A stretch of DNA of 64,000 nt from assembly GCF_026212465.1 (NCBI RefSeq), contig NC_080049.1, positions 36,806,885 through 36,870,884 of the forward strand, written 5' to 3'. The DNA comes from Amaranthus tricolor (lineage: Eukaryota > Streptophyta > Magnoliopsida > Caryophyllales > Amaranthaceae). Position 1 is the stretch's first letter; every line of letters starts with the position of its first letter. A program made the position numbers and the translations under genes. The notes beneath the pieces are model-generated. The model was not told the DNA's origin. It made no database searches and worked only from the letters and a program-made list of their open reading frames with translations. This document shows, in pieces, positions 3,596 to 19,921 of this stretch.

Positions 3596-3773
3596 CACTA
3601 CAAATAACTATCGAAATAGCGATGGAAAAATAGCGATGGGGTTGGTTGGTCGCCAGTGGCGACGGATAGGCGAGGGCAAGAAACGTCGCCAAAAGGAAAA
3701 GCAAAATAGCGACGGGCATACTGGTCGCCACTCCGTCGCTCAATGCTTTTAATTTTTTATTTTTTTTAAAAAA

Positions 3774-3951
3774 TATTTAGCGACCGGCGCTCTGGTCGCT
3801 GGGCCTTGGAAATGAAAAAAGTTTGCGTGCTGCAATAAGAAAAAAAACGGCTTCTAGTATTTTTTTTAATTATTATTATTATTATTAATATTATTTTATT
3901 ATTAGTATTAGTATTATTATTATTGTTATTATTAGTATTATTACAACGTTG

Positions 3952-3989
<38 letters not shown>

Positions 3990-4060
3990 TTATTATTATT
4001 AGTATTAGTATTATTATTATTGTTATTATTAGTATTATTACAACGTTATTATTGTTATTA

Positions 4061-4129
<69 letters not shown>

Positions 4130-5355
4130 TTTTATTTTATTATCTGGCGACAAGATGATCGCCAATTTTTTTTTTGTTTTTTTTAAATAATTCTTTGCGA
4201 TATTCAAGTTGTGTCGCGATTTAGTCGCCAAGTAGACCGTAATTTTTTTTTAATAAACATAGGCGACGGTGGCTTGGAAGCCATATGGTCGCCGCCACTT
4301 TTTCAATTTGAATTTGAAAACATGGCGATGGGTTTGTCATGGCCGTGTTGTCGCCATATTTTCTATAAATAACACGTAGAATTATTGTGTATCGTATATT
4401 TCGGTAACTAAAGAATTAGAAGAGGTTTTTTATTTAATTAGTACATATTTTACTCGTTTGTTATTAATTTACTTGAGTTTTTTATATTATTTTATTGTTT
4501 TATATTTTATTTTAATTGTCATTAATTTTCCTTAATAATTGTTATTAGAATAATTATATTATTATCATATATTGTTACTTTCATGAATTGTTTTATATAT
4601 TTTTATTGTCATTAAATTACTAATCAGTTGAATAATTATATTATTATATTATATTTATGTGTTAAAAATGAATTTTAGTGTGTTTCCAGATGGTGCATAT
4701 ATGTGCTATTGTGAACGAAGTGTTATCAGAAGAGAATACGATGGTAAACAACTTCTAAGAAACGAAAAAACAAATTGCTTGAAGAAGATGCATCGGAACA
4801 TAATAAAGAGGTTAGTAAGTACTCTGCAGGATGGAAGGAGAGGAGCATATTTTGGGATTTGTCATATTGGAAAACAAACATTTTGTTGTGTGTGCCAAGT
4901 AAAACAAAGGATCACATCAAGGGTTGAAACGAAAAACGAGTAACCTATCAAACGAGTAACGTTGTTCAAATGTCATTAGTATGACCCAATTACTACTGAA
5001 AATAAGTTAACATACATCAAGATCGCTCGTATTGTTTATATGATCCATTTGTGTTGGCAAGTCAAGCACGTCAATTATATTATCTTCCATATCCGAGTAC
5101 AACACAAAATTTAAAACATGTGGATCTTGTACTCTCAGAAAACGAAGAATCCGAAGATGAAGATGTTGAGAACAACGAGTATTTTAGTGATGAAGAGTAG
5201 TTTAATTATTTATATGTAATTATTTATATGTAATTATTTAATATTTTGTAATATTTAATACAATTTTATTATATTCCTCCGAATTATTAATATTTTGCAG
5301 TAATAATATTAATAACAACAACAACAATAATAATAATAACACATAAAAATAAGTA

Positions 5356-5437
<82 letters not shown>

Positions 5438-5444
5438 AAATAAC

Positions 5445-5521
<77 letters not shown>

Positions 5522-5571
5522 CGTTGTAATAATACTAATAATAACAATAATAATAATACTAATACCAATAA

Positions 5572-5639
<68 letters not shown>

Positions 5640-5787
5640 TAATAATAATAATGAAAATAACAACAACAATAATAATAATAATAATAATAATTTTAAAAAA
5701 ATACTGCAAGCCGATTTTTTCCTTACTGCAGCACGCAAACTTTTTTCATTTTCAAGACCCAGCGACCACACTGGCGGTCGCTAAATA
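3774..5787. repeat. Inverted repeat with TTA/TAA arrays inside the CACTA element
   Basis: Sequence from 3774 (TATTTAGCGACCGG) runs through a TTTGCGTGCTGCA core into a TTA array. It recurs in reverse complement ending at 5787. The arrays occupy about 3866-4136 and 5322-5694. Each is interrupted by the same ACAACGTTGT island and AGTATTAGTATTA phase breaks. The interval between the arms is about 1.2 kb. Confidence 0.85.
5039..5200 (+). pseudogene. CACTA transposase-associated protein remnant (DUF4216-like C-terminus)
   Basis: The plus-strand frame 5039-5200 reads 53 residues then TAG. It starts YDPFVLASQARQLYYLPYPS, the core motif I recognise from the DUF4216 region of CACTA TNP2-family proteins. 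It ends in an acidic Glu/Asp/Asn-rich tail, ENEESEDEDVENN, then YFSDEE. The upstream frame is broken, and the open frame at 4659-4943 gave no recognisable domain. The piece lies inside the inverted-repeat arms of the CACTA element. It is a decayed fragment, not a functional gene. Confidence 0.75.
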
Positions 5788-6600
5788 CTGATTATAAATG
5801 CCGTTTAATCTGCTCTCATTTCTCATTTCCTACAACTCTATCTTCACTTACCTTATACTTCTTCATTCCTTATACGCGTTTTTATCTTTCCAACTCTAAT
5901 TTTTCTTTTCATCCATTAATCTCAATCTCTATTTATTTTCTTTTCTTTCTTAATCTCATCCTCATCATCTTGGGGTTACAACTTATTTTCAACTCTAAAA
6001 TTCTCATCTTGTTATTAAAAGGTTAGTATTTATTATATATTTTTTTGTATTTTTTCAATGTTCTTGATGATTATGATAATATTTTGTTTCATGATGCCTT
6101 TTTTTTATGTTTTTTTTTAATATTTTCGAATAATGGCATTTTTGAAACATGTTTATTGCTAGTATTTTCCAGTTTTTTCTTATATTCATATTTAGTTTTA
6201 AATCGTTTTTTTTTAATATTTCAAGAACAATCGAAAGGTCCAAGAGCCACAGCCTATGGAGTTTAATAATCAATTATGGGAAGCGGTGCAAATGGTAAAT
6301 GAAGTTCAATAATCAATTAAGGAAAGCGGTGACTGAACAATCAAATGGTCAAAGATCCACAGCCTATGAGACTCACCAAAGGTCGACTGAACAAATTCAA
6401 AGAGAATGAGAACTCTTTTTTAAAATTCATTCAATCCTATCTCAATTTGTAACGACCCCCTCTTTCAAATGAATGATTAAATATATGTACTTTTTGTGAC
6501 TTTGTACATAAACTTTAATTATATATATATATTTCCAGCTCATTATTTTTATTTACTTGTTTTACATGTATATATATATATTTATCTTAATATTACAACA

Positions 6601-6604
<4 letters not shown>

Positions 6605-6687
<83 letters not shown>
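6605..6687. repeat. (TA)n microsatellite inside the CACTA element
   Basis: An uninterrupted TA dinucleotide array of about 80 bp lies just inside the right subterminal GCGAC-rich zone. Confidence 0.95.
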
Positions 6688-6688
<1 letters not shown>

Positions 6689-7010
6689 TAATAAATAAAA
6701 TAGGCGACAGTTGGCGATGGAAAGCGGGTCGCTAAGCAGACTGATAGGCAGGCGACGACCCAGCTACGACATGGTGGTCGCCCGTTGGCGACTAAATAGC
6801 TAGAAGACGGTGGTCGCCAGTTTGGCGACGGGATTCAGGTCGCAAATTGGTCGCTAAGAAAAGGCGAGGAAATGGCGTCCATTTTGAGATTAGCGACGAA
6901 AGGAATAGCGACCACCTCGTATCTCGTCGCCAGACCTACTTTTTGACCGTTTAGCTATCAAATGGCGATGAAATGGTTTGTCGCCATTTTATTATTTTAT
7001 TGTAGTGTTC

Positions 7011-8374: not shown

Positions 8375-9332
8375 TAGCGAAGAAAACTACATTTTATTTA
8401 GTAATTTTTTTACTCAATTCTTATTTTTCGCTACCTTTTTCATTTTATCGCCACCCCTATTTTAAATTAATTTAATAAAATGACGAAAATGCCCTTGGAC
8501 TTAAAAATTTTAAAACTTCTATAAAACACTTCAAACTCACTCAATAGCACTTTTATCACTTCAAAAAACACAAAATCTACACATTAAATTAATCGGAGCT
8601 AAAGTGCGACTAAACCTAGGAGAAGTAGTTAACAAAAACTCGAGGTAACTTCTATTTTAATGTAATTCAAAATTAAAAAAAAATAAAATAAATTAAAATA
8701 AAAATTACTAGTCGCACAAAAAGTGCGACTGAACCTAGGAACAGTGGCACAAAAAGTGCGACCAAAACTAGGTCCAGTCGCACTTTTTGTGCGACTCCTC
8801 CTAGGTTCAGTCGCACTTTTTGTGCGAGTCGTAATTTTTTTTTTTTTGAATTTTGAAAGTCCTTTTGTTTATTTAATTTATTTTTTAAGTTATTATTATT
8901 TAATAAATGTTGTAATAAATTATTTTATTTTAATATATTATTATATTATGATAATATTATTATAATAATTAGTTTTGAATTTAAATAATTTATTTAAATG
9001 TTTAATTATTTTTTAATATAATAATAATATATTAATTAAAATTTAGTTGTTAATAATTTATTAATATAATAATTTTTAATAAAATTTTATTTTAGTTGTT
9101 AATTAAATTTTAGTTGTTTAATTATTTATTAATATAATAATTGTTTATTTGTTTATATGTGTGAATTGTTTTAGTTGTTAATAATTTATGTGATTGTAAG
9201 TGTTTATTAAATTTAATTAAATTTTTATTAAATTAATATTGTAATTTTAATTACAATGAATATAACCTAATGTATTTTTTTATCCTTTTAATTTTTTATT
9301 AATAGCTTATTAAATTATAAAAATTGTAATAA

Positions 9333-9812
9333 ATGGCTGGAAATCAGGAAAAAAGAAAAGGCTTTTTTAGAGGGTTATTGAGCGGCAATAGTTCTAGGCC
9401 GATTTTACTGAGAGAGGATCCCCATGAGAGGGGGGTTAAGGGTTCTACAAGGCGCGCCAAGCAGGAATAAGCGGCCAGACATAGTCAGGCCCAACGTTCG
9501 AGTACCCTAGACCATGTGCGTAGCCGCTTTGAGCGTCAGACTAGCCTGCGTAGTAATACGGTCGGCTCAGGTGATGATGATACTAATTACGATGAGTCTG
9601 TCAGTCAGGAAGAGTCTGTCGGTCAGGATGAGTCTGTCGGTCATCCTGTTGATTGGACGCTCGTCAGAGGGCATGCCGGTCAGTTTAGGATTAGAGGGCA
9701 TAGCACGGCTGACACTTCTGATCACGTAGGAGTCAGCCAGGTTGAGGATGCGGCTCCAGGGGGGAGGACTCTGCCGTTAATATCCCTCAACCTCTCCAAC
9801 ACCCAAGAATAA
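9333..9812 (+). pseudogene. Element-A open frame with one in-frame stop (function unknown)
   Basis: From ATG 9333 the frame reads MAGNQEKRKGFFRGLL and stays open to 9812, except for a TAA at 9468-9470. It then continues with a basic stretch (RSRFERQTSLRS), an acidic three-fold repeat of the type ESVGQDESVGH, and a Gly/His segment (RGHAGQFRIRGH). It overlaps the minus-strand transposase fragment at its 3' end. It loosely recalls N-termini of plant-mobile-domain proteins carried by some MULEs, but I see no diagnostic motif. The single stop suggests recent decay or a sequence error. Confidence 0.45.
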
Positions 9813-10084
9813 GACATAGCCGCCTCATCTCGCATCAAACAGAACGCAACCAAGAAGTTGTGATTGGTTGGTGTCATTCCAATTATTTCGCAAAGGGGCG
9901 ACTTTTGCTTATTAGTTTTGTACGTTGTGTCTATCAACACAACATGGGGCCACGAACGTATCATCTGCATAGATGTAGGATTTGCAATCAATAATCTACT
10001 CAACTGCACCTCACTATCCAAGTCTGTCCAAACTACATAACTCTGTGGCCATATAAAGAAAGTATTGAAGAGGAGTCCTTCCAT
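9722..10084 (-). pseudogene. MULE transposase domain fragment
   Basis: The 120-residue minus-strand frame matches the start of the MULE transposase catalytic domain as I know it from FAR1-like proteins. It contains IRSWPHVVLIDTTYKTNKQ, where the Asp of the LIDTTYKTN motif is the usual first catalytic acid. It continues with a SPLCEIIGMT / NFLVAFCLMRDE pattern and YSWVLERL. The frame is lost downstream, where the remaining catalytic residues would lie. It sits about 115 bp downstream of the FAR1-domain frame with stops between them. Confidence 0.82.
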
Positions 10085-10199
10085 CCATCTCTTCTCTCCT
10101 TATTAACAGACTTACATTATAAATTTTATTCATATTAGCAAAAAACCAGGAAAATTCCTTCTAATTGAAGTCATTATAAACGCCAGTTACACTAAGATC

Positions 10200-10637
10200 T
10201 CATATGTGCTGCCTAATATCGACCGTCATCCTATTTACTCTTATTTGACCATCTCTGTACACCAAGAATGGGTGGTTATGTCTTCCTTTTTCACCAAGAA
10301 ACACTCTTACCGTCCAATGTCTTTTCCCTGGTTTACGACTACTTCCTAAAATCATAAATTTACACCCACAAGCCCTACTTTTAGAACCAGGTCGGGTAGC
10401 ATTGTCTAAGTTATGCAAATCACTCCTTATATTACCATAACGGTGACATCTTAAGTACAAACTCACTCTAGAACGTCCTTCCTTTTGTTTATATGAAGCA
10501 CGTGTAAATTGAAAACCAATTCTTAGTGCTATTTCATCAGCCCAAGCATTTAAATCATCTATAGAATCAAATTCCCTATCGATAACAAATCTATCAGAGT
10601 AATCTACATTATCCCCTAAGTTTTCAAAGTCCTGCAA
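10200..10637 (-). pseudogene. FAR1 DNA-binding domain fragment
   Basis: The 145-residue minus-strand frame resembles the FAR1 (WRKY-GCM1 zinc finger) DNA-binding domain. It starts with FDSIDDLNAWADEIALRIGF and then a basic YKQKEG region. It has a zinc-ligand pattern of Cys in YLRCHRYG and ACGCKF, and His in GRHNHPF. It lies upstream of the transposase fragment in the FAR1-then-MULE order. Stops separate the two, so it is a relic. Confidence 0.82.
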
Positions 10638-11585
10638 ATATAAATTTATTCTTAATAATTAAAAGATTAAACTATTTAATATATGAACAATATCAATTAG
10701 TTTAATAATTCAAATTTCAATATATTAACAATATCAATACAATAATATGAAATAAAAAATTTTACTAAATAAAATACATACATAAAATAAAATAAATTAA
10801 AATAACATAAATAAATAATTTAAGTAAACACAAATATATATATAAATATATAATAAAATTAAATAATTTACTATAATATTTGATAAATAATAATAACTTA
10901 AAAAATAATTATAATAAATAAAAAGAATTAATTTCAAAAAAAAAATTGATTAAAAAATTTCCAGAACCCCCAATCGCCCAAAAGTGCGAATTGACCTAGG
11001 AGGAGGCCCACAAAAAGTGCAACTCAGCCTAGGTCCAGTCGCATTTTTTGTGTGACTCTCCCTAGGTCTGGTCGCACATTTTGTGCGACTGGGGGGGGTT
11101 TTGGAAATTTTTTTTTTGACAAATTTCGAATCAATTAATTACTTACCGAATCGTTATCATGCTCGTTTTTGTTCGCCATTGTTATTCGATGTACATTTTT
11201 AGCTTATTTTAAGTTAACATAGTGTTTTTGAAGAGTTTCAGAGAGATGTTACAGTTTTTGAGTTCGAAAATTATACAGGGGCAATCTTGAAAATTCATTT
11301 TATATAGGATGGTGATAAAAAGAAAAAGGTGGCGATATTTAGTAATATTTTTTTTTATTACAACAAAAAGAATAAAATAATAATAATTAATAACTTAATG
11401 AGTCAAACTTGACCCACCTGCAATCGACTAATGTGACATCTCTTGATATATGTTACACATTTTATTACCCAATCCTTAAAGTTTGCTACCCCTTTTCATT
11501 TTTTTGCCACCCCCCTCTAAAATTACGTATTTGCCCCTGTAATTTAAAAAATTACAAAAATGCCACTCCTTACAAATTTCTTATT

Positions 11586-11623
<38 letters not shown>

Positions 11624-11761
11624 CAACAATAATAAAATTAAATAATAATAATAAATAAAATTAATAATAATAATAACAGTAATAATAATAATAATAATAA
11701 AAACAACAATAATAAAATTAAATAATAATAATTATTATTCAAAAAAAAAAAAAAAAAAAAG

Positions 11762-11856
11762 TTGAGTCGCCCAAAATTGGGAGACTGAACCATGGTCGAG
11801 TCGCCCAGATCTGGGCGATTGAACCATGGTCCAATCGCCCAATTTTGCGCGACTCA
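11762..11856. repeat. Hairpin-module array, element B left arm
   Basis: Three modules of the GAGTCGCCCAAAATTGGG type are separated by GAACCATGGTCG / GAACCATGGTCC spacers. Each module is itself a short palindrome. The mirror array is at 12,238-12,332. Confidence 0.85.
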
Positions 11857-11943
11857 ATTTTTTTTTTTTTTTTTTTTCTTTTTGGATAATAATAATAATA
11901 ATAATAATATTAATACTAATAATAATAATTTATAGATTAGTGT

Positions 11944-12017
11944 GGTCTATTAGCTCAGTTGGTTAGAGTGTTGTACTAATAACGTGAAGGTCACAGGTTC
12001 GAGACCTGAACAAGCCA
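11944..12017 (+). pseudogene. tRNA-Ile(AAT)-like sequence, left copy
   Basis: The 74-nt cloverleaf-length sequence starts GGTCTATTAGCTCAGTTGG and ends CAAGCCA. The A box (TAGCTCAGTTGG) and B box (GGTTCGAGACC) are intact. The anticodon loop reads CTAATAA, giving anticodon AAT (Ile). The acceptor stem has mismatches (about two of seven pairs), so I call it a pseudogene or transposon-borne copy. It lies in the left inner arm of palindromic element B. Confidence 0.85.
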
Positions 12018-12079
12018 TTATTTAATAATTATTAATTTTTTATTATTAATATGATAAAAAATTAATAATTATTAAATAA

Positions 12080-12153
12080 TGGCTTGTGCAGGTCTCGAAC
12101 CTGTGACCTTCACATTAATAGTACAACGCTCTAACTAACTAAGCTAATAGACC
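12080..12153 (-). pseudogene. tRNA-Ile-like sequence, inverted copy
   Basis: This is the reverse-complement partner of the left copy, the same 74 nt long. The B box GGTTCGAGACC is intact, while the A box is altered to TAGCTTAGTTAG. The anticodon loop has changed to CTATTAA, so the Ile anticodon is lost. The two copies are separated by a 62-bp AT hairpin, placing them head-to-head across the palindrome centre. Confidence 0.85.
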
Positions 12154-12237
12154 ACATTAATTTATAAATTATTATTATTAGTATTAATATTATTATTATT
12201 ATTATTATTATCCAAAAAGAAAAAAAAAAAAAAAAAT

Positions 12238-12332
12238 TTGAGTCGCCCAAAATTGGGCTACTGGACCATGGTTCAGTCGCCCAGATCTGGGCGACTCGAC
12301 CATGGTTCAGTCGCCCAATTTTGGGCGACTCA
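12238..12332. repeat. Hairpin-module array, element B right arm
   Basis: Mirror image of the left-arm array. Modules such as CGCCCAATTTTGGGCGACT alternate with ACCATGGTTCAG spacers, then run into a poly-T and TTA array. Confidence 0.85.
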
Positions 12333-12388
12333 ACTTTTTTTTTTTTTTTTTGAATAATAATTATTATTATTTAATTTTATTATTGTTG

Positions 12389-12429
<41 letters not shown>

Positions 12430-12803
12430 AATAAAAAGTTTAAAATGAGTGGTAAAATTGTAATTTTCAAAAAATCAAAGACAAATTTGTAATTTCATTT
12501 GGAGGGGTGGCGAAGTTTAGCAACACTATTTTATTATTAGTAAGGTTTCTCATAAAATAATACATATATGATCTACACTTTACATATGAGGCTGTTAGAT
12601 GAACAACAAAGCAATATATGTGAGAACAACGACATGTTTTTTTGGTGACCACATTGAATTACAATCTTATAAATGTTCTTTATCATGCCTCACTTAGAGA
12701 AGTCAGTAGGAATTATTAAGGCTGCTAGATGTAATACGTGTAAGTCTACCGTGAATAAAATCCCAACGGTAGTTCTTTTGAGTTCACTATGAAACATTGA
12801 AAG

Positions 12804-12922
12804 TTATTAAATTTCGCCACTCATTTTCATTTTATCACTATTCACCACCCTTCTTCAAATAAAATTATAAATTTATCCTTAATTTTTAAAAAATTACAAT
12901 TTTATCATTCCATATAAATTTC

Positions 12923-12972
<50 letters not shown>

Positions 12973-13322
12973 TAACTTTATTATATTCTTCAAAAAGAAT
13001 ATAATTAAAATTAATAATAATAACAGTAATAATAATAATAATAATATTTATAATAATAATAATAATAACAACAACAATAATATTTTAAAAATAATTATTA
13101 TTATTCAAAAAGAAAAAAAAAATTGAATCGCCCAGAACCGGGCGATTGGACCTCGGTTCAATCGCCAAAAAAGTGGCGATTGAACCGGGGTCCAATCGCC
13201 AAAAAAGTGGCGATTGAACCGGGGTCCAATCGCCAAAAAAGTGGCGATTGAACCGGGGTCCAATCGCCCAGTTCTGAGCGATTCAATTTTTTTTCTTTTT
13301 GAATAATAATTATTATTTTTAA

Positions 13323-13369
<47 letters not shown>

Positions 13370-13622
13370 GTTTTATTTATATTCTTTTTGAAGAATATAA
13401 AAAAGTTAATTATTATTGTTATTGTTGTTATTGATGATATTATTATTATTATTATTAATATTATTATTATTATTATTATTATTACTATTACTATTACTAT
13501 TATAAATAAGAAATTTGTAAGGAGTGGCAAAATTATAATTTTTTAAAAATTAGGGACAAATTCGTAATTTTATTTAGAGGGGGGTGGCGATAAAATGAAA
13601 AGGGTGGCGAAATTTAAGAATT
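12804..13622. mobile_element. MULE-like element C (short palindromic copy)
   Basis: Terminal repeats read TTAAATTTCGCCAC on the left and GGGTGGCGAAATTTAA on the right, the clearest end pair of the three-element family. Inside each end come a segment shared with element B (ATTTGTAAGGAGTGGCAAAA on the right), TAA/TTA arrays and a shared AAAAAGAATATA patch. The centre is a hairpin array. It has no coding capacity and no clear target duplication. Confidence 0.72.
13160..13261. repeat. Three exact 34-bp hairpin units
   Basis: Three tandem 34-bp units start at 13,160, 13,194 and 13,228. Each contains the palindrome AATCGCC(A)6GTGGCGATT followed by GAACCGGGGTCC. They form the core of element C and are flanked by variant GAATCGCCCAG modules. 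Confidence 0.92.
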
Positions 13623-13625
13623 GGG

Positions 13626-14346: not shown

Positions 14347-14942
14347 TGAAAACGATCGCCAAATACTTACGATGTTAAGAACAAACAACAATGAGCAAAA
14401 ATAAGTTTGACAAAGTAACAAACAAGGACACAAAAATTTAAGGAGGTTCACCCAATGATGGCTACGTCCTCCGTGGTGTGTAGTTATGTTTATATTATAT
14501 CAAATGAATACAAACAACACTTCAATATGAAGAATTACAATTGAGATAGAGATAACAACAATAGGCTATGTGTTTGGCTTAAGGGTTGTGTTTGATGTGT
14601 TTTTACATACTTGAAGTGTGGGTATGAGAGCCCTATTTATAGTGCTAGGTACTTGAAGATGAATGGCTCACATAAATACATAGTTAATTTAGGGTAATGA
14701 ATACTATGAAATAACTCTAAGAACTTGAAAAGGCATTATCTCAAGAGTCACACACATGAGACTCTTCACCTTAATCTTCATTAACACCAATAATTCCCAT
14801 GAATACTCTTCACCTTATTACACCCTTTTGGATTCCACAACTCAAGAGTCACACACATGAATTCAACCCTTTAATGTGCACTCAAGTCACACATTAGTAT
14901 ACTATCATTTATAATCACATTAGTATACTACCATTCATAACA
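14347..14942 (-). repeat. 3' LTR of the Copia element
   Basis: It begins TGAAAACGATCGCC and ends TTCATAACA on the plus strand (TG...CA form, 596 bp). A TATA-like CTATAAATAGG in minus orientation lies at about 14,632-14,642. AAGAC target duplication immediately outside. Confidence 0.9.
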
Positions 14943-15037
14943 ATCTCCACCTTGACTTGAGTTCACCCAAGTCACAACATTCATCAATCCACTTCATATT
15001 CAAAAAACATACACACCTCAAAATGCCCAAGAGGGCA

Positions 15038-16561
15038 TTATCTCAAGCAAGGAGTTAAACCTACCAAGTCAACACATAACTCAAACTTGGTAGTAGGTAA
15101 TGACTTTGTCATCATGTCGGCCGGATTTTCCGTAGTGTCAATTTTCTTCAATAACATCCTTTTGTGCTCAACTTCATCCCGGATAAAGTTATACTTAATG
15201 TCAATGTGCTTGGACCTTCTATGAAATGTATTTTGATTTCTAGCCAAATGTATTGCACTTTGACTATCACAATGCACACTTACCTCACACACCTTATTGC
15301 ACATTTCACCAACAAGACCTTTAAGCCATTTTGCTTCCTTGAATGACTCGGCCACGGCTATGTACTCCGCTTCGGTTGTAGAAAGAGCAACCACATCTTG
15401 CAAAGATGATTGCCAACTAATCGCCGAACCACCCAAAGTAAACACGAACCCACTTGTGGACTTTCTATTATCTAGATCACCACCATAATCCGAGTCACAA
15501 AACCCGGTTAGCTCACTTGAATTTTTCCCATACATGAGATAAACATTTGAAGTATCTTTCAAATACCTCAATAGCCATTTTAGTGCCTCCCAATGTCCCT
15601 TACCCGGATTAAACATATATCTACTCACCAAACTCACCGCATGAGCAATGTCGGGCCTAGAGCATACCATAGCATACATAACGCTACCAACGGCACTAGT
15701 GTATGGAATTCTTACCATTTGCTCTTCTTCCTCTTTTGTTTGTGGACACAAATTCTTGGACAATTTGAAATGAGAAGCAAGAGGAGTAGACACACCTTTA
15801 GCATCATCCATAGAGAAACGTTGAACAACTTTCTCAATGTACTTCCTTTGACTAAGGTATAAGACACCCTTAGCCCGATCTCTCAAAATCTCCATCCCAA
15901 GAATCTTCTTGGCTTCACCAAGATCATTCATATCAAATTCACTTGAAAGCAACTCTTTCAAGTCCTCCACCTTAAGCAAAGAGCTACATGCTACTAGCAT
16001 ATCATCAACATATAAGAGCAAATATAGTAAAGAACCATCTTCAAATTTCTTAAGATAAACACAGCTATTATAAGAACTTCTAACAAAATCATGTGAAATC
16101 ATAAAGGAAGCAAACCTTTTGTACCATTGCCTTGGAGATTGCTTCAACCCATACAATGACCTCTTCAATCTACACACATGATTCTCCTTACCGGCTACCT
16201 CAAAACCTTCCGGTTGCTTCATAAAGATTTCTTCTTCAAGCTCACCGTGAAGAAAAGCCGTCTTTACATCCAATTGATGTAACTCCAAATCCTCCATCGC
16301 CACCAAAGCAAGCAATGCCCTAATAGAAGAGTGTTTCACGACCGGAGAGAAAACTTCGTGAAAATCAATACCCTCAATTTGAGAGTATCCCTTTGCAACA
16401 ACCCTTGCTTTGTAGATGGGAGGAATATCACTAGAAGGACCCTCCTTCCTCTTGAATATCCACTTGCACCCCACAATCTCTTTTTCTTTGGTGCAACAAC
16501 GATATCCCAAGTTCCATTCTTCGCAAGAGATTCCATCTCTTGTTTCATAGCAATCAACCAC
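15038..16561 (-). pseudogene. Copia reverse transcriptase - RNase H segment
   Basis: This 507-residue frame is the C-terminal part of the polyprotein. It shows the RT start (KARVVAKGYSQ), VKTAFLHGELEEEIFMKQPE, the catalytic YVDD (LLYVDDMLVA), and RNase H motifs (GFCDSDYGGD and ALSTTEAEYIAVAES). The stop at 15,038 is close to the 3' LTR, as usual. It overlaps the integrase frame by 226 bp in a different frame; the shift falls near 16,480, beside a short T run. It would copy element RNA in virus-like particles if translated with the upstream parts. The frameshift could be real decay or an indel error. Confidence 0.93.
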
Positions 16562-17490
16562 TTGCTTGAGTCATTTGAGGCCATAGCCTCCTTGTACGTA
16601 CTTGGTTCATTTAACCCTTCGACTTCGCTAGCAATGTTGAGAGCATAAACAACATAATCACACTCTTCAATGTACCTCCTTGGAGCCACGATCTTCCTTC
16701 TTTGCCTAGTTGTGGACAAAGGAGGAGACCTTTGTTGAACATCATCATTTTTCTCATTATCAACATTGGAGGATTCAACCTCCACTTGTGCTTCATTATC
16801 ATCATTATTAAAAGGTTTTTCAACATTAGATACAAGCATGCTATCTTCATCAAAAACAACATCTCTAGAAACAATAATTTTCTTTGATTCATTACACCAT
16901 ACCCTATACCCCTTTACACCCACTCCATACCCCACAAAGATACCTTTTCTAGCCCTAGGTTCTAACTTACCATCATTTACATGAATATAAGCTGGACAAC
17001 CAAAGATTCTAAGACTAGAATAGTTTACCGGAGTGTTGTACCATACCTCTTGTGGCGACTTGAACTTCAAGGCGGTATGAGGTGAACGGTTGATCAAATA
17101 ACATGCCGTAGCCACCGCTTCGGCCCAAAATTGTTTCCCCAAATTTGCTTGATTTAGCATGCATTTTGCCCTTTCCAATAACGTTTTATTCATCCTCTCC
17201 GCAACACCATTTTGTTGAGGACGACCTGCACAAGTTCTATGTCTAACAATACCTTCATTAGAACAATAATTGAGAAACTTGCTATCAACAAATTCAAGAC
17301 CATTGTCGGTTCTCAAGGTCTTGATGCTCCTACCGGCTTTCTTTTCAATCATCTTCTTCCATTCCAAGAAGACATCAAAAACTTCATATTTATGTTTTAT
17401 AAAGTAACACCAAACTTTTCTAGAGTAATCATCAATAAAGGTCAACATGTAGCTACAACCACTAAGGGAGGGCGTTCGTGAAGGCCCCAC
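16336..17490 (-). pseudogene. Copia integrase segment
   Basis: The 384-residue frame covers the integrase catalytic core: FIDDYSRKVW, the second Asp in LRTDNGLEF, and Glu in NGVAERMNKTLLERA. The first Asp and the zinc-binding region lie in the preceding frame. It continues through the IFGCPAYIHV and KGIFVGYG motifs to the linker before RT. The reading frame is offset from both neighbours, with shifts near 17,480 and 16,480. The last about 30 residues are out-of-frame read-through. Confidence 0.92.
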
Positions 17491-18965
17491 AAGTCGGAAT
17501 GGACATAATCTAATATCCCCTTAGTGTTGTGGATGGCGGGTTTAAAACTAACTCTCTTGTGTTTCCCATAAACACAATGTTCACAAAAACCAAGGTTCCC
17601 AAAATTTTTTCCATCAAATAAACCTTGTTTAGAGAGTTCAAACATACCTCTTTCGCTCATGTGACCAAGCCTCAAGTGCCAAAGTTTGGTGTCACGATCG
17701 GACATTGTGCTTGTGGATACATTCGCCGAGCCAAGAATGGTTGAACCTTGAAGAGCATACAAACTCCCATTCAACCTCCCCTTCATCACCACTAGTGAAC
17801 CCTTGGCTACCTTCATAACTCCACCTTCACAAGTGATTCTACACCCGATCTTATCAAGAGTACCCAAAGATAAAAGATTCTTTTTCAAGCCCGGGACATA
17901 CCTTACATCGGTTAAGGTCCTCACAATCCCATCAAACATTTTAATTTTAATGCTCCCAATCCCAACAACCTTACATGTGGTGTTGTTTCCCATGGTAACA
18001 TTTCCCCCATCAACACTTTCAAATGTATGGAAGAAAGTTTTGTTGGGAGTCATGTGGAATGTGCACCCCGAATCAAGAATCCATTCATTATTACCTTTGT
18101 ACTCATGAGTGGCAACAAGAACATCGCCATCATCACTATCATTCACGTAACTAGCATTGGCATTGCTAGTTCCTTCCCTTGCCTCTTCTTCTAGCTTTCT
18201 CTTAAGCTTCCAACAATCATTCTTGATGTGGCCCTTAAGCTTGCAATAGTTACAAGACTTATTTTTGTTTGGCCTCACGGACTTGGACCTTCCTTTACCC
18301 TTGTTTCCACTCCCACTAGTGGAACCTTTCTCTTGTGACCTCCCTCTTACAAACAAACCGTCACTAGCATTGCTTGGTGACTTTTGTGACAATTGTGTAT
18401 CAATGAGATCCCTTTGAGTCAAGGCATTCTTCACATCATCACTACTCAAATTATCTCTACCATAAAGTAGAGTTTCTCTAAAATTTTTATAAGAAGGGGG
18501 TAAAGAACATAAAAGATAAATTGCCAAGTCTTCATCATCAAGCTTAACATCAATGTTTTGTAAATCCATAACAATGGAACAAAACTCATCCAAGTGAGGT
18601 TTTAAAGGTTTACCTTCCTCCAAGCGTAAGTCGTAGAGTCTACTCTTCAAAAGTAGCCTATTGGTAACACTCTTGGCCATGTAGAGTGATTCCAATTTCT
18701 CCCATATACTCTTGGTTGTTGTTTCTTTAACAACCTCTCTTAGAACTTCATTGGATAAGCATAATTGGATTGCCGATAACGCCTTTGTGTCTATCTCTTC
18801 CCGTCTCGATGCGGACATTCCTTCCGGCATCTTCTCTACACCATCAATCGCCTTGTGCACACCATTTTGAATCAAAATGGCTCTCATTTTGACTTGCCAT
18901 AAGCCAAAATTTACATTCCTATCAAACTTCTCAATATCGAGCTTCATTGTAGTCATGATTTTCAA
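17442..18965 (-). pseudogene. Copia gag - protease - pre-integrase segment
   Basis: The 507-residue frame starts at an ATG at 18,965. Residues 10-200 are a Copia gag (UBN2-type; NFGLWQVKMRAIL, YLLCSLPPSYKNF). A CCHC zinc knuckle (CNYCKLKGHIKNDC) lies at 238-251. The protease active site is the DSG in WILDSGCTFHM (298-300). The GAG-pre-integrase motif WHLRLGHMSERGM follows, then the first integrase Asp (HSDLWG) just before the frame is lost. The patchwork region starts directly upstream, so no native leader or primer site precedes this start. Confidence 0.93.
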
Positions 18966-19496
18966 GTAATAACCTTACGATGTTAAGAACAAATACTTAC
19001 GATGAATGTTGTGACTTGGTGTATTAGAGCATAAACAACATAATCACACTCTTCAATGTACCTCCTTGGAGCCACGATCTTCCTTCTTTGCCTAGTTGTG
19101 GACAAAGGAGAAACGTATTCATCCATTGTATTCATCCATGGAGAAACGTTGAACAACTTTCTCAATGTAGTTCAATGTTGTTCAACGTATTCATCCATGG
19201 AGAAAGTTTGATGGGATTGTGAGGACCTTAACCAAAGGAAGTACATTGAGAAAGTTGTTCAAAGGAAGTACATTAAGAAAGTTGTTCATACCTTAGTCAA
19301 AGGAAGTACATTGAGAAAGTTGTTCAACGTTTCTCCATGGATGAATACAACATAATCACACTCTTCAATGTACCTCCTTGGAGCCACGATCTTCCTTCTT
19401 TGCCTAGTTATGGAGGTACATTTAACATCGTAAGGTTATTACTTGACATACAATACTTACCATTCATAACAATCTACTTACGATGAAAGTTTACAA
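18963..19496. other. Scrambled patchwork of Copia-derived fragments
   Basis: About 530 bp made of short copied pieces from elsewhere in the same element, in both orientations. Pieces at 19,029-19,110 and 19,348-19,409 match 16,641-16,724. Repeated pieces in both orientations match about 15,800-15,860. GATGGGATTGTGAGGACC matches 17,916-17,938 inverted. GAATGTTGTGACTTG matches 14,968-14,985 inverted. CCATTCATAACAATCT matches 14,931-14,946. TTACGATGTTAAGAACAAA matches the 3' LTR start zone. It replaces the U5 end of the 5' LTR and the primer binding site. Confidence 0.9.
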
Positions 19497-19921
19497 CACT
19501 TCAATATGAAGAATTACAATTGAGATAGAGATAACAACAATAGGCTATGTGTTTGGCTTAAGGGTTGTGTTTGATGTGTTTTTACATACTTGAAGTGTGG
19601 GTATGAGAGCCCTATTTATAGTGCTAGGTACTTGAAGATGAATGGCTCACATAAATACATAGTTAATTTAGGGTAATGAATACTATGAAATAACTCTAAG
19701 AACTTGAAAAGGCATTATCTCAAGAGTCACACACATGAGACTCTTCACCTTAATCTTCATTAACACCAATAATTCTCATGAATACTCTTCACCTTATTAC
19801 ACCCTTTTGGATTCCACAACTCAAGAGTCACACACATGAATTCAACCCTTTAATGTGCACTCAAGTCACACATTAGTATACTATCATTTATAATCACATT
19901 AGTATACTACCATTCATAACA
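19497..19921 (-). repeat. Truncated 5' LTR of the Copia element
   Basis: Nearly identical to 14,518-14,942. It lacks the first about 170 bp of the LTR as seen on the plus strand, i.e. the end nearest gag. It ends TTCATAACA and is followed by AAGAC. The minus-orientation TATA motif is retained near 19,610-19,621. Confidence 0.9.

What the first reader, a model, noticed from the sequence alone, without database searches (positions are those of the whole stretch)
8416..13622. A clustered family of MULE-like elements built from swappable hairpin modules
Three elements within 5.2 kb share related ends (AAATTTCGCCACC-type) and an internal plan. Short palindromes containing (A/G)TCGC...GCGA(C/T) alternate with spacers. 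The palindrome core and spacer differ by element: GTCGCAC(A)nGTGCGAC with CCTAGG in A, GTCGCCCAAAATTGGGCGAC with CCATGG in B, and ATCGCC(A)6GTGGCGAT with ACCGGGGTCC in C. The architecture is conserved while the sequence changes, as if modules were amplified and exchanged within each element. I know of no named family with this design.
Basis: partly seen in the sequence, partly recalled or inferred. Interest (0 to 1): 0.8.

Follow-up and report, generated by a model that had tools for sequence, protein, structure and literature searches.

The report
Amaranth jumping genes with module arrays
Three neighbouring DNA elements in an amaranth genome belong to one large family of cut-and-paste transposons that carry fast-changing clusters of short mirror-image DNA motifs near their ends, probably docking sites for the transposon's own proteins, which makes it a natural system for watching such sites evolve.

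Summary
The window is plant DNA, very probably Amaranthus tricolor. Elements A (8413-11349), B (11468-12528) and C (12799-13625) belong to one large Mutator-like (MULE) family. Genome-wide, the end motif AAATTTCGCCACC occurs 230 times (reversed control 6). Eleven of 17 paired copies have exact 8- or 9-bp target duplications. Coding copies pair a MULE transposase gene with a convergent plant-mobile-domain (PMD) gene; A keeps fragments of both. The 'hairpin modules' are dyad motifs in subterminal arrays, on the transposase side inside predicted intron 1. One perfect module, AGTCGCAC-N5/6-GTGCGACT, occurs at 1,694 places (control 0). Arrays differ in sequence and copy number between elements whose transposases are 98-99% identical. 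RNA-pairing constraint finds little support: none in clade 1, one two-sided pair in clade 2. Best reading: clustered DNA-binding sites for an element-encoded protein, turning over quickly as proposed for VANDAL/VANC targets. Modular foldback MULEs are known, so this is a new variant, not a new kind.

The parts
8413..11349 (.). Element A: deleted PMD-MULE with two module arrays
   Evidence: end alignment, exact ends (by the tip rule); PF10551
8405..8412 (.). A target duplication, left (TTTTTTTA, low complexity)
   Evidence: needs a 13-nt right tip, one short of the family's 14
11350..11357 (.). A target duplication, right (TTTTTTTA)
8709..8834 (+). A left module array (4 dyads, period 33, CCTAGG spacers); a degraded module also at 8590-8626
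9333..9812 (+). N-terminal remnant of a PMD-protein gene; in-frame stop at 9468, next stop at 9810
   Evidence: relatives continue into PF10536
9722..10631 (-). MULE transposase exon 2 remnant, broken (open pieces 9722-10099 and 10200-10658)
   Evidence: PF10551 2.6e-12; tblastn of P0034 and P0001
10632..11146 (-). Predicted transposase intron 1, holding the right array
   Evidence: GT donor after 11147, AG acceptor before 10631; by homology to P0023
11147..11179 (-). Predicted transposase exon 1 (MANKNEHDNDS)
10970..11095 (-). A right module array, partly degraded
11468..12528 (.). Element B: non-coding, two arrays around a tRNA-derived palindrome
11460..11467 (.). B target duplication, left (TTTTATTA)
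12529..12536 (.). B target duplication, right (TTTTATTA)
11762..11858 (.). B left module array (3 dyads, CCATGG spacers)
12238..12334 (.). B right module array (3 dyads)
11861..12236 (.). B central palindrome, 186-nt arms, 95% complementary, 4 nt apart
11943..12018 (+). tRNA-Ile(AAT)-derived sequence, copy 1
   Evidence: (34.1 bits)
12079..12154 (-). tRNA-derived sequence, copy 2 (anticodon ATT)
   Evidence: (37.2 bits)
12799..13625 (.). Element C: non-coding, one central array; no target duplication found
13121..13286 (.). C module array (5 dyads, the middle three identical)

Best explanation
A, B and C are members of one large MULE family of (very probably) Amaranthus tricolor. SHOWN by sequence: coding members carry a transposase gene and often a convergent PMD gene; arrays of dyad modules sit mostly 190-460 nt inside the ends, within predicted transposase intron 1 on that side, and also in short non-coding copies; lineages differ in module sequence; arrays change faster than the sequence around them. 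INFERRED: each dyad is a paired DNA site read by an element-encoded protein, more likely the transposase's N-terminal part, else the PMD protein (that sub-reading is also listed as a rival; the odds are not additive). Clustered sites at both ends would recruit the protein for end pairing and cutting, and/or keep the ends free of silencing. Slippage and gene conversion spread variant half-sites through an array, so site and protein can shift together. Non-coding copies keep arrays because the sites act in cis. The tRNA pair in B is captured cargo.
For: End motif 230 against 6; exact duplications in 11 of 17 paired loci, exact 8-bp match in 0 of 2,000 shuffled pairs. Perfect dyad at 1,694 places against 0. 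20 of 20 loci L029-L048 hold GTCGCAC-type modules. AGTCGCAC is in 17 of 17 and GTGCGACT in 16 of 17 clade-1 upstream parts, level with exon-1 coding words (16) and above the end word TCGCCACC (12). 7 of the first 8 listed end sites have a module within 800 nt inside, 0 of 8 outside. Of 15 paired loci tested, 12 have modules in both halves, of like kind by eye; seven of the 15 are close relatives. 63 of 150 listed transposase hits have a convergent PMD hit within 8 kb, 0 divergent, 1 same strand; shifted control 0. L051 and L054: transposase 98.7%, leader plus exon 1 96.5%, arrays of different half-sites. Precedents: VANC targets; subterminal or terminal tandem repeats in Muta1 and Tm1.
Against: No binding, methylation or expression data. 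Module type following transposase clade is also what joint descent would give, and L057 breaks it: its transposase is outside clade 1 but its modules are GTCGCAC-type. Both fold models are poor (pLDDT 50 and 40); no Pfam domain was found N-terminal to the DDE part and no PDB relative at E up to 10. Recent-burst copies have partly lost the CCTAGG spacer and have 24-25 bp spacing. In A, modules match less across its two arrays (0.59) than within one (0.67), and the element-label effect is modest (58 of 5,000 permutations reach it). An earlier count seemed to put half-site words above exon-1 words; it cut off exon 1 in some loci and one search corrects it, so I lowered this reading from 0.60 to 0.58 and raised the neutral rival from 0.22 to 0.24.
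Confidence: 0.58

Rival explanations
1. The arrays are selectively neutral minisatellites that arose in the ancestor and turn over by slippage; the dyad shape only reflects foldback-prone DNA.
For: Copy number varies from 3 to 6 among nine clade-2 loci; arrays sit between AT-rich, low-complexity stretches; joint descent explains module type by clade.
Against: Retained across diverged clades and in non-coding copies; half-site words are as widely shared as exon-1 coding words; spacers changed or were lost while dyads stayed.
Confidence: 0.24
2. The modules act as RNA: intronic hairpins that feed small-RNA silencing or control splicing of the transposase pre-mRNA.
For: Arrays lie in predicted intron 1 (24 of 34 loci modelled), so they would be transcribed; whole arrays are near-palindromic, 44 of 48 pairs in B right but 40 of 61 in A right; between A, B and C the arms differ on both sides while pairing is kept; one clade-2 pair shows GC 9 and TA 4.
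Against: 0 compensated cells of 728, and 17 wobbles against 28 A-C changes (modules were picked by likeness to one consensus, which biases against finding compensation); one clade-2 pair mismatched in 33 of 37; non-coding copies keep arrays without the gene.
Confidence: 0.1
3. The arrays are targets of the PMD protein, acting as an anti-silencing factor as VANC does, not of the transposase (a sub-reading of the best explanation).
For: PMD gene linked to the transposase gene; Ikeda et al. speculated that MULE-captured PMDs serve anti-silencing; fractions of the genes needing MAIN, MAIL1 and PP7L carry a 'DOWN' promoter motif.
Against: No DNA binding by a PMD protein in the passages read; no methylation data here.
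Confidence: 0.25

Closest known systems
VANDAL MULEs and their VANC target arrays, Arabidopsis (PMC5735166, PMC10398659; abstract and passages seen)
   Same: MULE with an accessory gene; short motifs in non-coding tandem repeats that diverge fast between related elements
   Different: Here the accessory gene is PMD, the motifs are dyads, and inverted ends are clear; VANDAL ends are degenerate
Tm1 Mutator/Foldback of root-knot nematodes (PMC3169594; abstract and passages seen)
   Same: Asymmetric terminal motifs, 9-bp duplications, tandem motif arrays, mostly MITE-like copies, a histone-hairpin motif carried by some
   Different: Tm1 repeats are 13-15 bp units making up most of the TIR; here 33-34 bp dyad units inside the TIR, in introns of coding copies
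Muta1 and other mosquito MULEs (PMC5225508; passages seen)
   Same: Long TIRs with short subterminal tandem repeats; derivatives carry variable numbers of them
   Different: 12-bp repeats with 3-4 bp spacers; no second gene described in the passages read
MuTAnT, and FARE1 as cited there (PMC4486113 passages seen; the FARE paper is not held)
   Same: Plant MULEs with modular foldback ends
   Different: No intron-borne dyad arrays or PMD gene in the passages seen; MuTAnT targets TA repeats
PMD-MULE fusions of grasses and Amborella (PMC5418596; passages seen)
   Same: A PMD carried by a MULE
   Different: There fused to the transposase; here a separate convergent gene in a eudicot
MuDR (two genes: passage; convergent order recalled) and barley Abermu (PMC9168764, abstract)
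   Same: Transposase plus further gene(s); in Abermu one runs in the opposite direction
   Different: Relation of the second genes was not tested

Membership tests
Mutator-like (MULE) superfamily | MULE transposase domain | tested here: met
   PF10551: 2.6e-12 in A; 4.3e-20 and 3.6e-20 in L029 and L051
Mutator-like (MULE) superfamily | 8-11 bp target duplications | tested here: met
   11 of 17 paired loci exact, 8 or 9 bp. A and B 8 bp, C none
Mutator-like (MULE) superfamily | Terminal inverted repeats | tested here: met
   about 100 nt, 54-84% alike among the six ends, behind asymmetric 14-nt tips
VANDAL/VANC | VANC-type gene | tested here: inconclusive
   A PMD gene was found in the accessory place; no VANC sequence was compared
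VANDAL/VANC | Fast-diverging tandem motif arrays in non-coding parts | tested here: met
VANDAL/VANC | Motifs bound by the accessory protein, causing methylation loss | not testable with these tools
   no binding or methylation data
VANDAL/VANC | Degenerate terminal inverted repeats | tested here: not met
   inverted ends clear in A, B, C and in 16 of 17 loci; L021's left end is doubtful
PMD-MULE fusion of grasses/Amborella | PMD fused to the transposase | tested here: not met
   opposite strands in 63 of the 64 linked pairs
Foldback/modular MULE (Tm1, FARE type) | Ends made of repeated modules | tested here: inconclusive
   arrays lie inside the TIR, mostly 190-460 nt from the end
Pack-MULE (element B) | Carries a fragment of a host gene | tested here: met
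   tRNA-derived pair, RF00005 34.1 and 37.2 bits
Pack-MULE (element B) | Parent gene found elsewhere in the genome | not tested
   the tRNA DNA query did not complete

The most novel reading that the evidence does not exclude
A eudicot MULE lineage has paired a captured plant-mobile-domain gene with private, hypervariable dyad arrays in its own first introns, and the PMD protein (or the transposase) reads those arrays. Array slippage and protein change then create new, mutually blind specificities within about 1-2% transposase divergence: a VANC-like anti-silencing or autoregulation system built from an unrelated protein, giving transposon-borne PMDs a function.
Probability: 0.25. Interest if true: 0.82.

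Novelty: new variant of a known kind. Interest (0 to 1): 0.62.

Why it matters
The role of the PMD in transposons is open in the literature seen here. This family gives many recent copies, both genes, and well over a thousand sites whose sequence changes while the rest of the element hardly does, so site-protein coevolution can be tested directly. It also shows that a MULE can spread a tRNA-derived palindrome through a genome.

Tried and rejected
First target duplication for A (TATTTAGTAAT, chance about 0.006) was dropped: family copies put the duplication 14 nt outside TTCGCC, which gives TTTTTTTA. A fixed 21-bp, two-helical-turn spacing was read off A, B and C by hand but fails in the recent-burst copies. 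The claim that half-site words outrank exon-1 words was an artefact of a 900-nt cut and is withdrawn. RNA-hairpin constraint was tested and finds little support. One search lost the first module of several arrays and misphased L059; one search replaces it, L059 (4 misphased units) left out of its pair counts, L058 not parsed. Two fold models were too poor to use and no fold search was run. Viral and bacterial collections gave nothing. The module-pair pattern and the genome-wide counts of B- and C-type modules did not complete by the busy search machine. Rows that did not translate (window:9332-9466; L010) were left out of the next call.
Full report
WHERE IT IS. The window is plant DNA. Proteins of element A match Amaranthus tricolor proteins. 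Two contigs of the window's genome have exactly the length of A. tricolor contigs in those listings (34,495,491 and 31,692,477 bases); two other listed lengths differ by 2-3 kb from C2 and C14, so the species is very probable, not proven. The window is G000:C3:36806885-36870884 in a 519.85-Mb assembly.

THE FAMILY. The end motif AAATTTCGCCACC occurs 116 times forward and 114 reverse; the reversed control 1 and 5. I took 15 inverted pairs from the 100 places listed, and the first five places with 6-kb stretches; two of those five also gave pairs, making 17. In 16 of 17 one tip is of the GGGAGTTACTAAAT kind and the other of the CCCGATCCTTAAAT kind, with changes, each directly outside TTCGCCACC; L021's left end is doubtful. 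With these tips, 8 of 17 have an exact 8-bp duplication and 3 an exact 9-bp one; an exact 8-bp match occurs in 0 of 2,000 shuffled pairs. The window's A and B fit, with TTTTTTTA and TTTTATTA; C has both tips but no duplication. A's right tip must be read as 13 nt and its duplication is nearly all T, so it is weak evidence alone.

THE GENES. A holds a broken transposase on the minus strand (PF10551) and, convergent to it, the start of a second gene on the plus strand with an in-frame stop. Relatives of the second protein continue into a plant mobile domain (PF10536, 47.7 bits in P0057, cut-off 34.9; P0056 and P0071 stay below the cut-off). Genome-wide, 150 transposase hits were scored of 1,808 candidates and 150 PMD hits of 1,284. 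Of the 150 listed transposase hits, 63 have a PMD hit within 8 kb in convergent order, 0 divergent, 1 on the same strand, and 86 have none listed; shifting by 200 or 500 kb gives 0. Many transposase hits share one score, which suggests a recent burst.

THE ARRAYS. Modules lie inside the ends. Of 20 loci L009-L028, 19 have at least one module by a scan for RTCGC-type dyads with 6 of 7 pairs; L017 has none. For the first eight listed end sites, 7 of 8 have a module within 800 nt inside and 0 of 8 outside. Of 15 paired loci given to (L017 and L021 were left out), 12 have modules in both halves; L014, L018 and L022 in one. Distances from the end run from 191 to 793 nt, mostly 190-460, and left and right arrays look alike in kind; L011, L013-L016, L019 and L020 are close relatives, so these are not independent. 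On the transposase side, a short exon 1 (33 nt as a rule) and a GT donor precede the array and an AG acceptor follows it: 24 of 34 loci gave such a model, with motifs between the two sites in all 24 (in L044 and L048 the script chose a nearer GT); L043 gave a spurious model, five gave none, and exon 2 was not matched in four. The predicted A. tricolor protein P0023 starts MAYQDVHDNDP-DFENLGDN, which spans this junction as read in L048. The matching intron on the PMD side (donor near 8645) is a guess from sequence.

MODULE TYPES AND TURNOVER. All 20 loci L029-L048 have GTCGCAC-N5/6-GTGCGAC-type modules; with A they form one side of a FastTree tree whose supports I did not print. On the other side, L049-L053, L055, L056 and L059 have GGCGC-type modules with mostly CCATGG spacers, L054 and L060 mixtures with GTCGC, L010 ATCGC; in L058 none was found. 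L057, outside clade 1 on the tree, nevertheless has GTCGCAC-type modules, so module type does not follow clade strictly. The perfect dyad occurs at 1,694 places, control 0. In 22 loci (the 20, A and L057), 49 of 91 modules are perfect. Among 17 clade-1 upstream parts, after dropping four of five near-identical copies, AGTCGCAC is in 17 and GTGCGACT in 16, level with exon-1 words (16) and above TCGCCACC of the ends (12). L051 and L054 share 98.7% of 900 nt of transposase and 96.5% of leader and exon 1, yet their arrays have different half-sites and 3 against 5 modules; L060 is a mixture; nine loci have 3 to 6 modules.

DNA OR RNA. In the 91 modules none of 728 paired cells is a compensated change, and single changes give 17 G-T wobbles against 28 A-C, so there is no sign of pairing in RNA; modules were picked by likeness to one consensus, which works against finding compensation. 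Of 37 clade-2 modules in nine loci, one pair is mismatched in 33; another pair holds GC in 9 and TA in 4, a two-sided change, but is mismatched in 24. Between A, B and C both arms differ while pairing is kept, which suits a dyad protein site as well as a hairpin. Non-coding copies keep arrays without any intron. Sequence-specific reading of double-stranded DNA fits better; this is not proof.

HOW IT MOST LIKELY WORKS. Clustered sites at both ends suit recruitment of a protein: the transposase for end synapsis, or a VANC-like factor against silencing. I favour an element-encoded DNA-binding protein at 0.58 in all; the transposase is the simpler choice because short copies need only cis sites for movement. 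That PMDs might serve anti-silencing in MULEs was suggested by Ikeda et al. (PMC5418596, passages). VANC targets are the nearest studied precedent (PMC5735166, passages).

THE tRNA CARGO. B contains a tRNA-Ile(AAT)-derived sequence twice, inverted. By blastn 12 of 20 loci L009-L028 and B carry it, 10 of these 13 twice and inverted; ARAGORN reports a tRNA in 10 of 20, in L025 as Asn. A 33-base element-type core occurs 43 times, control 0. The acceptor stem looks imperfect in most copies by eye, so working tRNAs are doubtful.

LITERATURE LIMITS. Nine searches of the held library listed no paper whose title or shown abstract describes this family or intron-borne dyad arrays in a MULE; most subscription papers and Repbase are not held, so it may be annotated elsewhere.

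Noticed in passing
window 11943-12018 and 12079-12154; 12 of 20 loci L009-L028: An inverted tRNA-Ile-derived pair at the centre of a non-coding subfamily; 43 exact copies of its core genome-wide.
   Followed up: partly
window 3596-7007: A CACTA-type element (CACTACAAA...TTGTAGTG, TTC on both sides, weak alone) whose subterminal motifs share the GTCGC/GCGAC core with the MULE modules; sharing a 5-base core may be chance.
   Followed up: partly
window about 14890-19919: A long copia-type retrotransposon: RVT_2 domain and a repeated 26-bp tandem at both ends.
   Followed up: no
L043, L046, L048: Copies of the recently amplified transposase subfamily have modules 24-25 bp apart, without the CCTAGG spacer there.
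   Followed up: partly
L047, reverse strand 33-250, outside the element end: A different tandem hairpin repeat, TCGCAGTT-ACT-AACTGCGA, every 46-55 nt.
   Followed up: no
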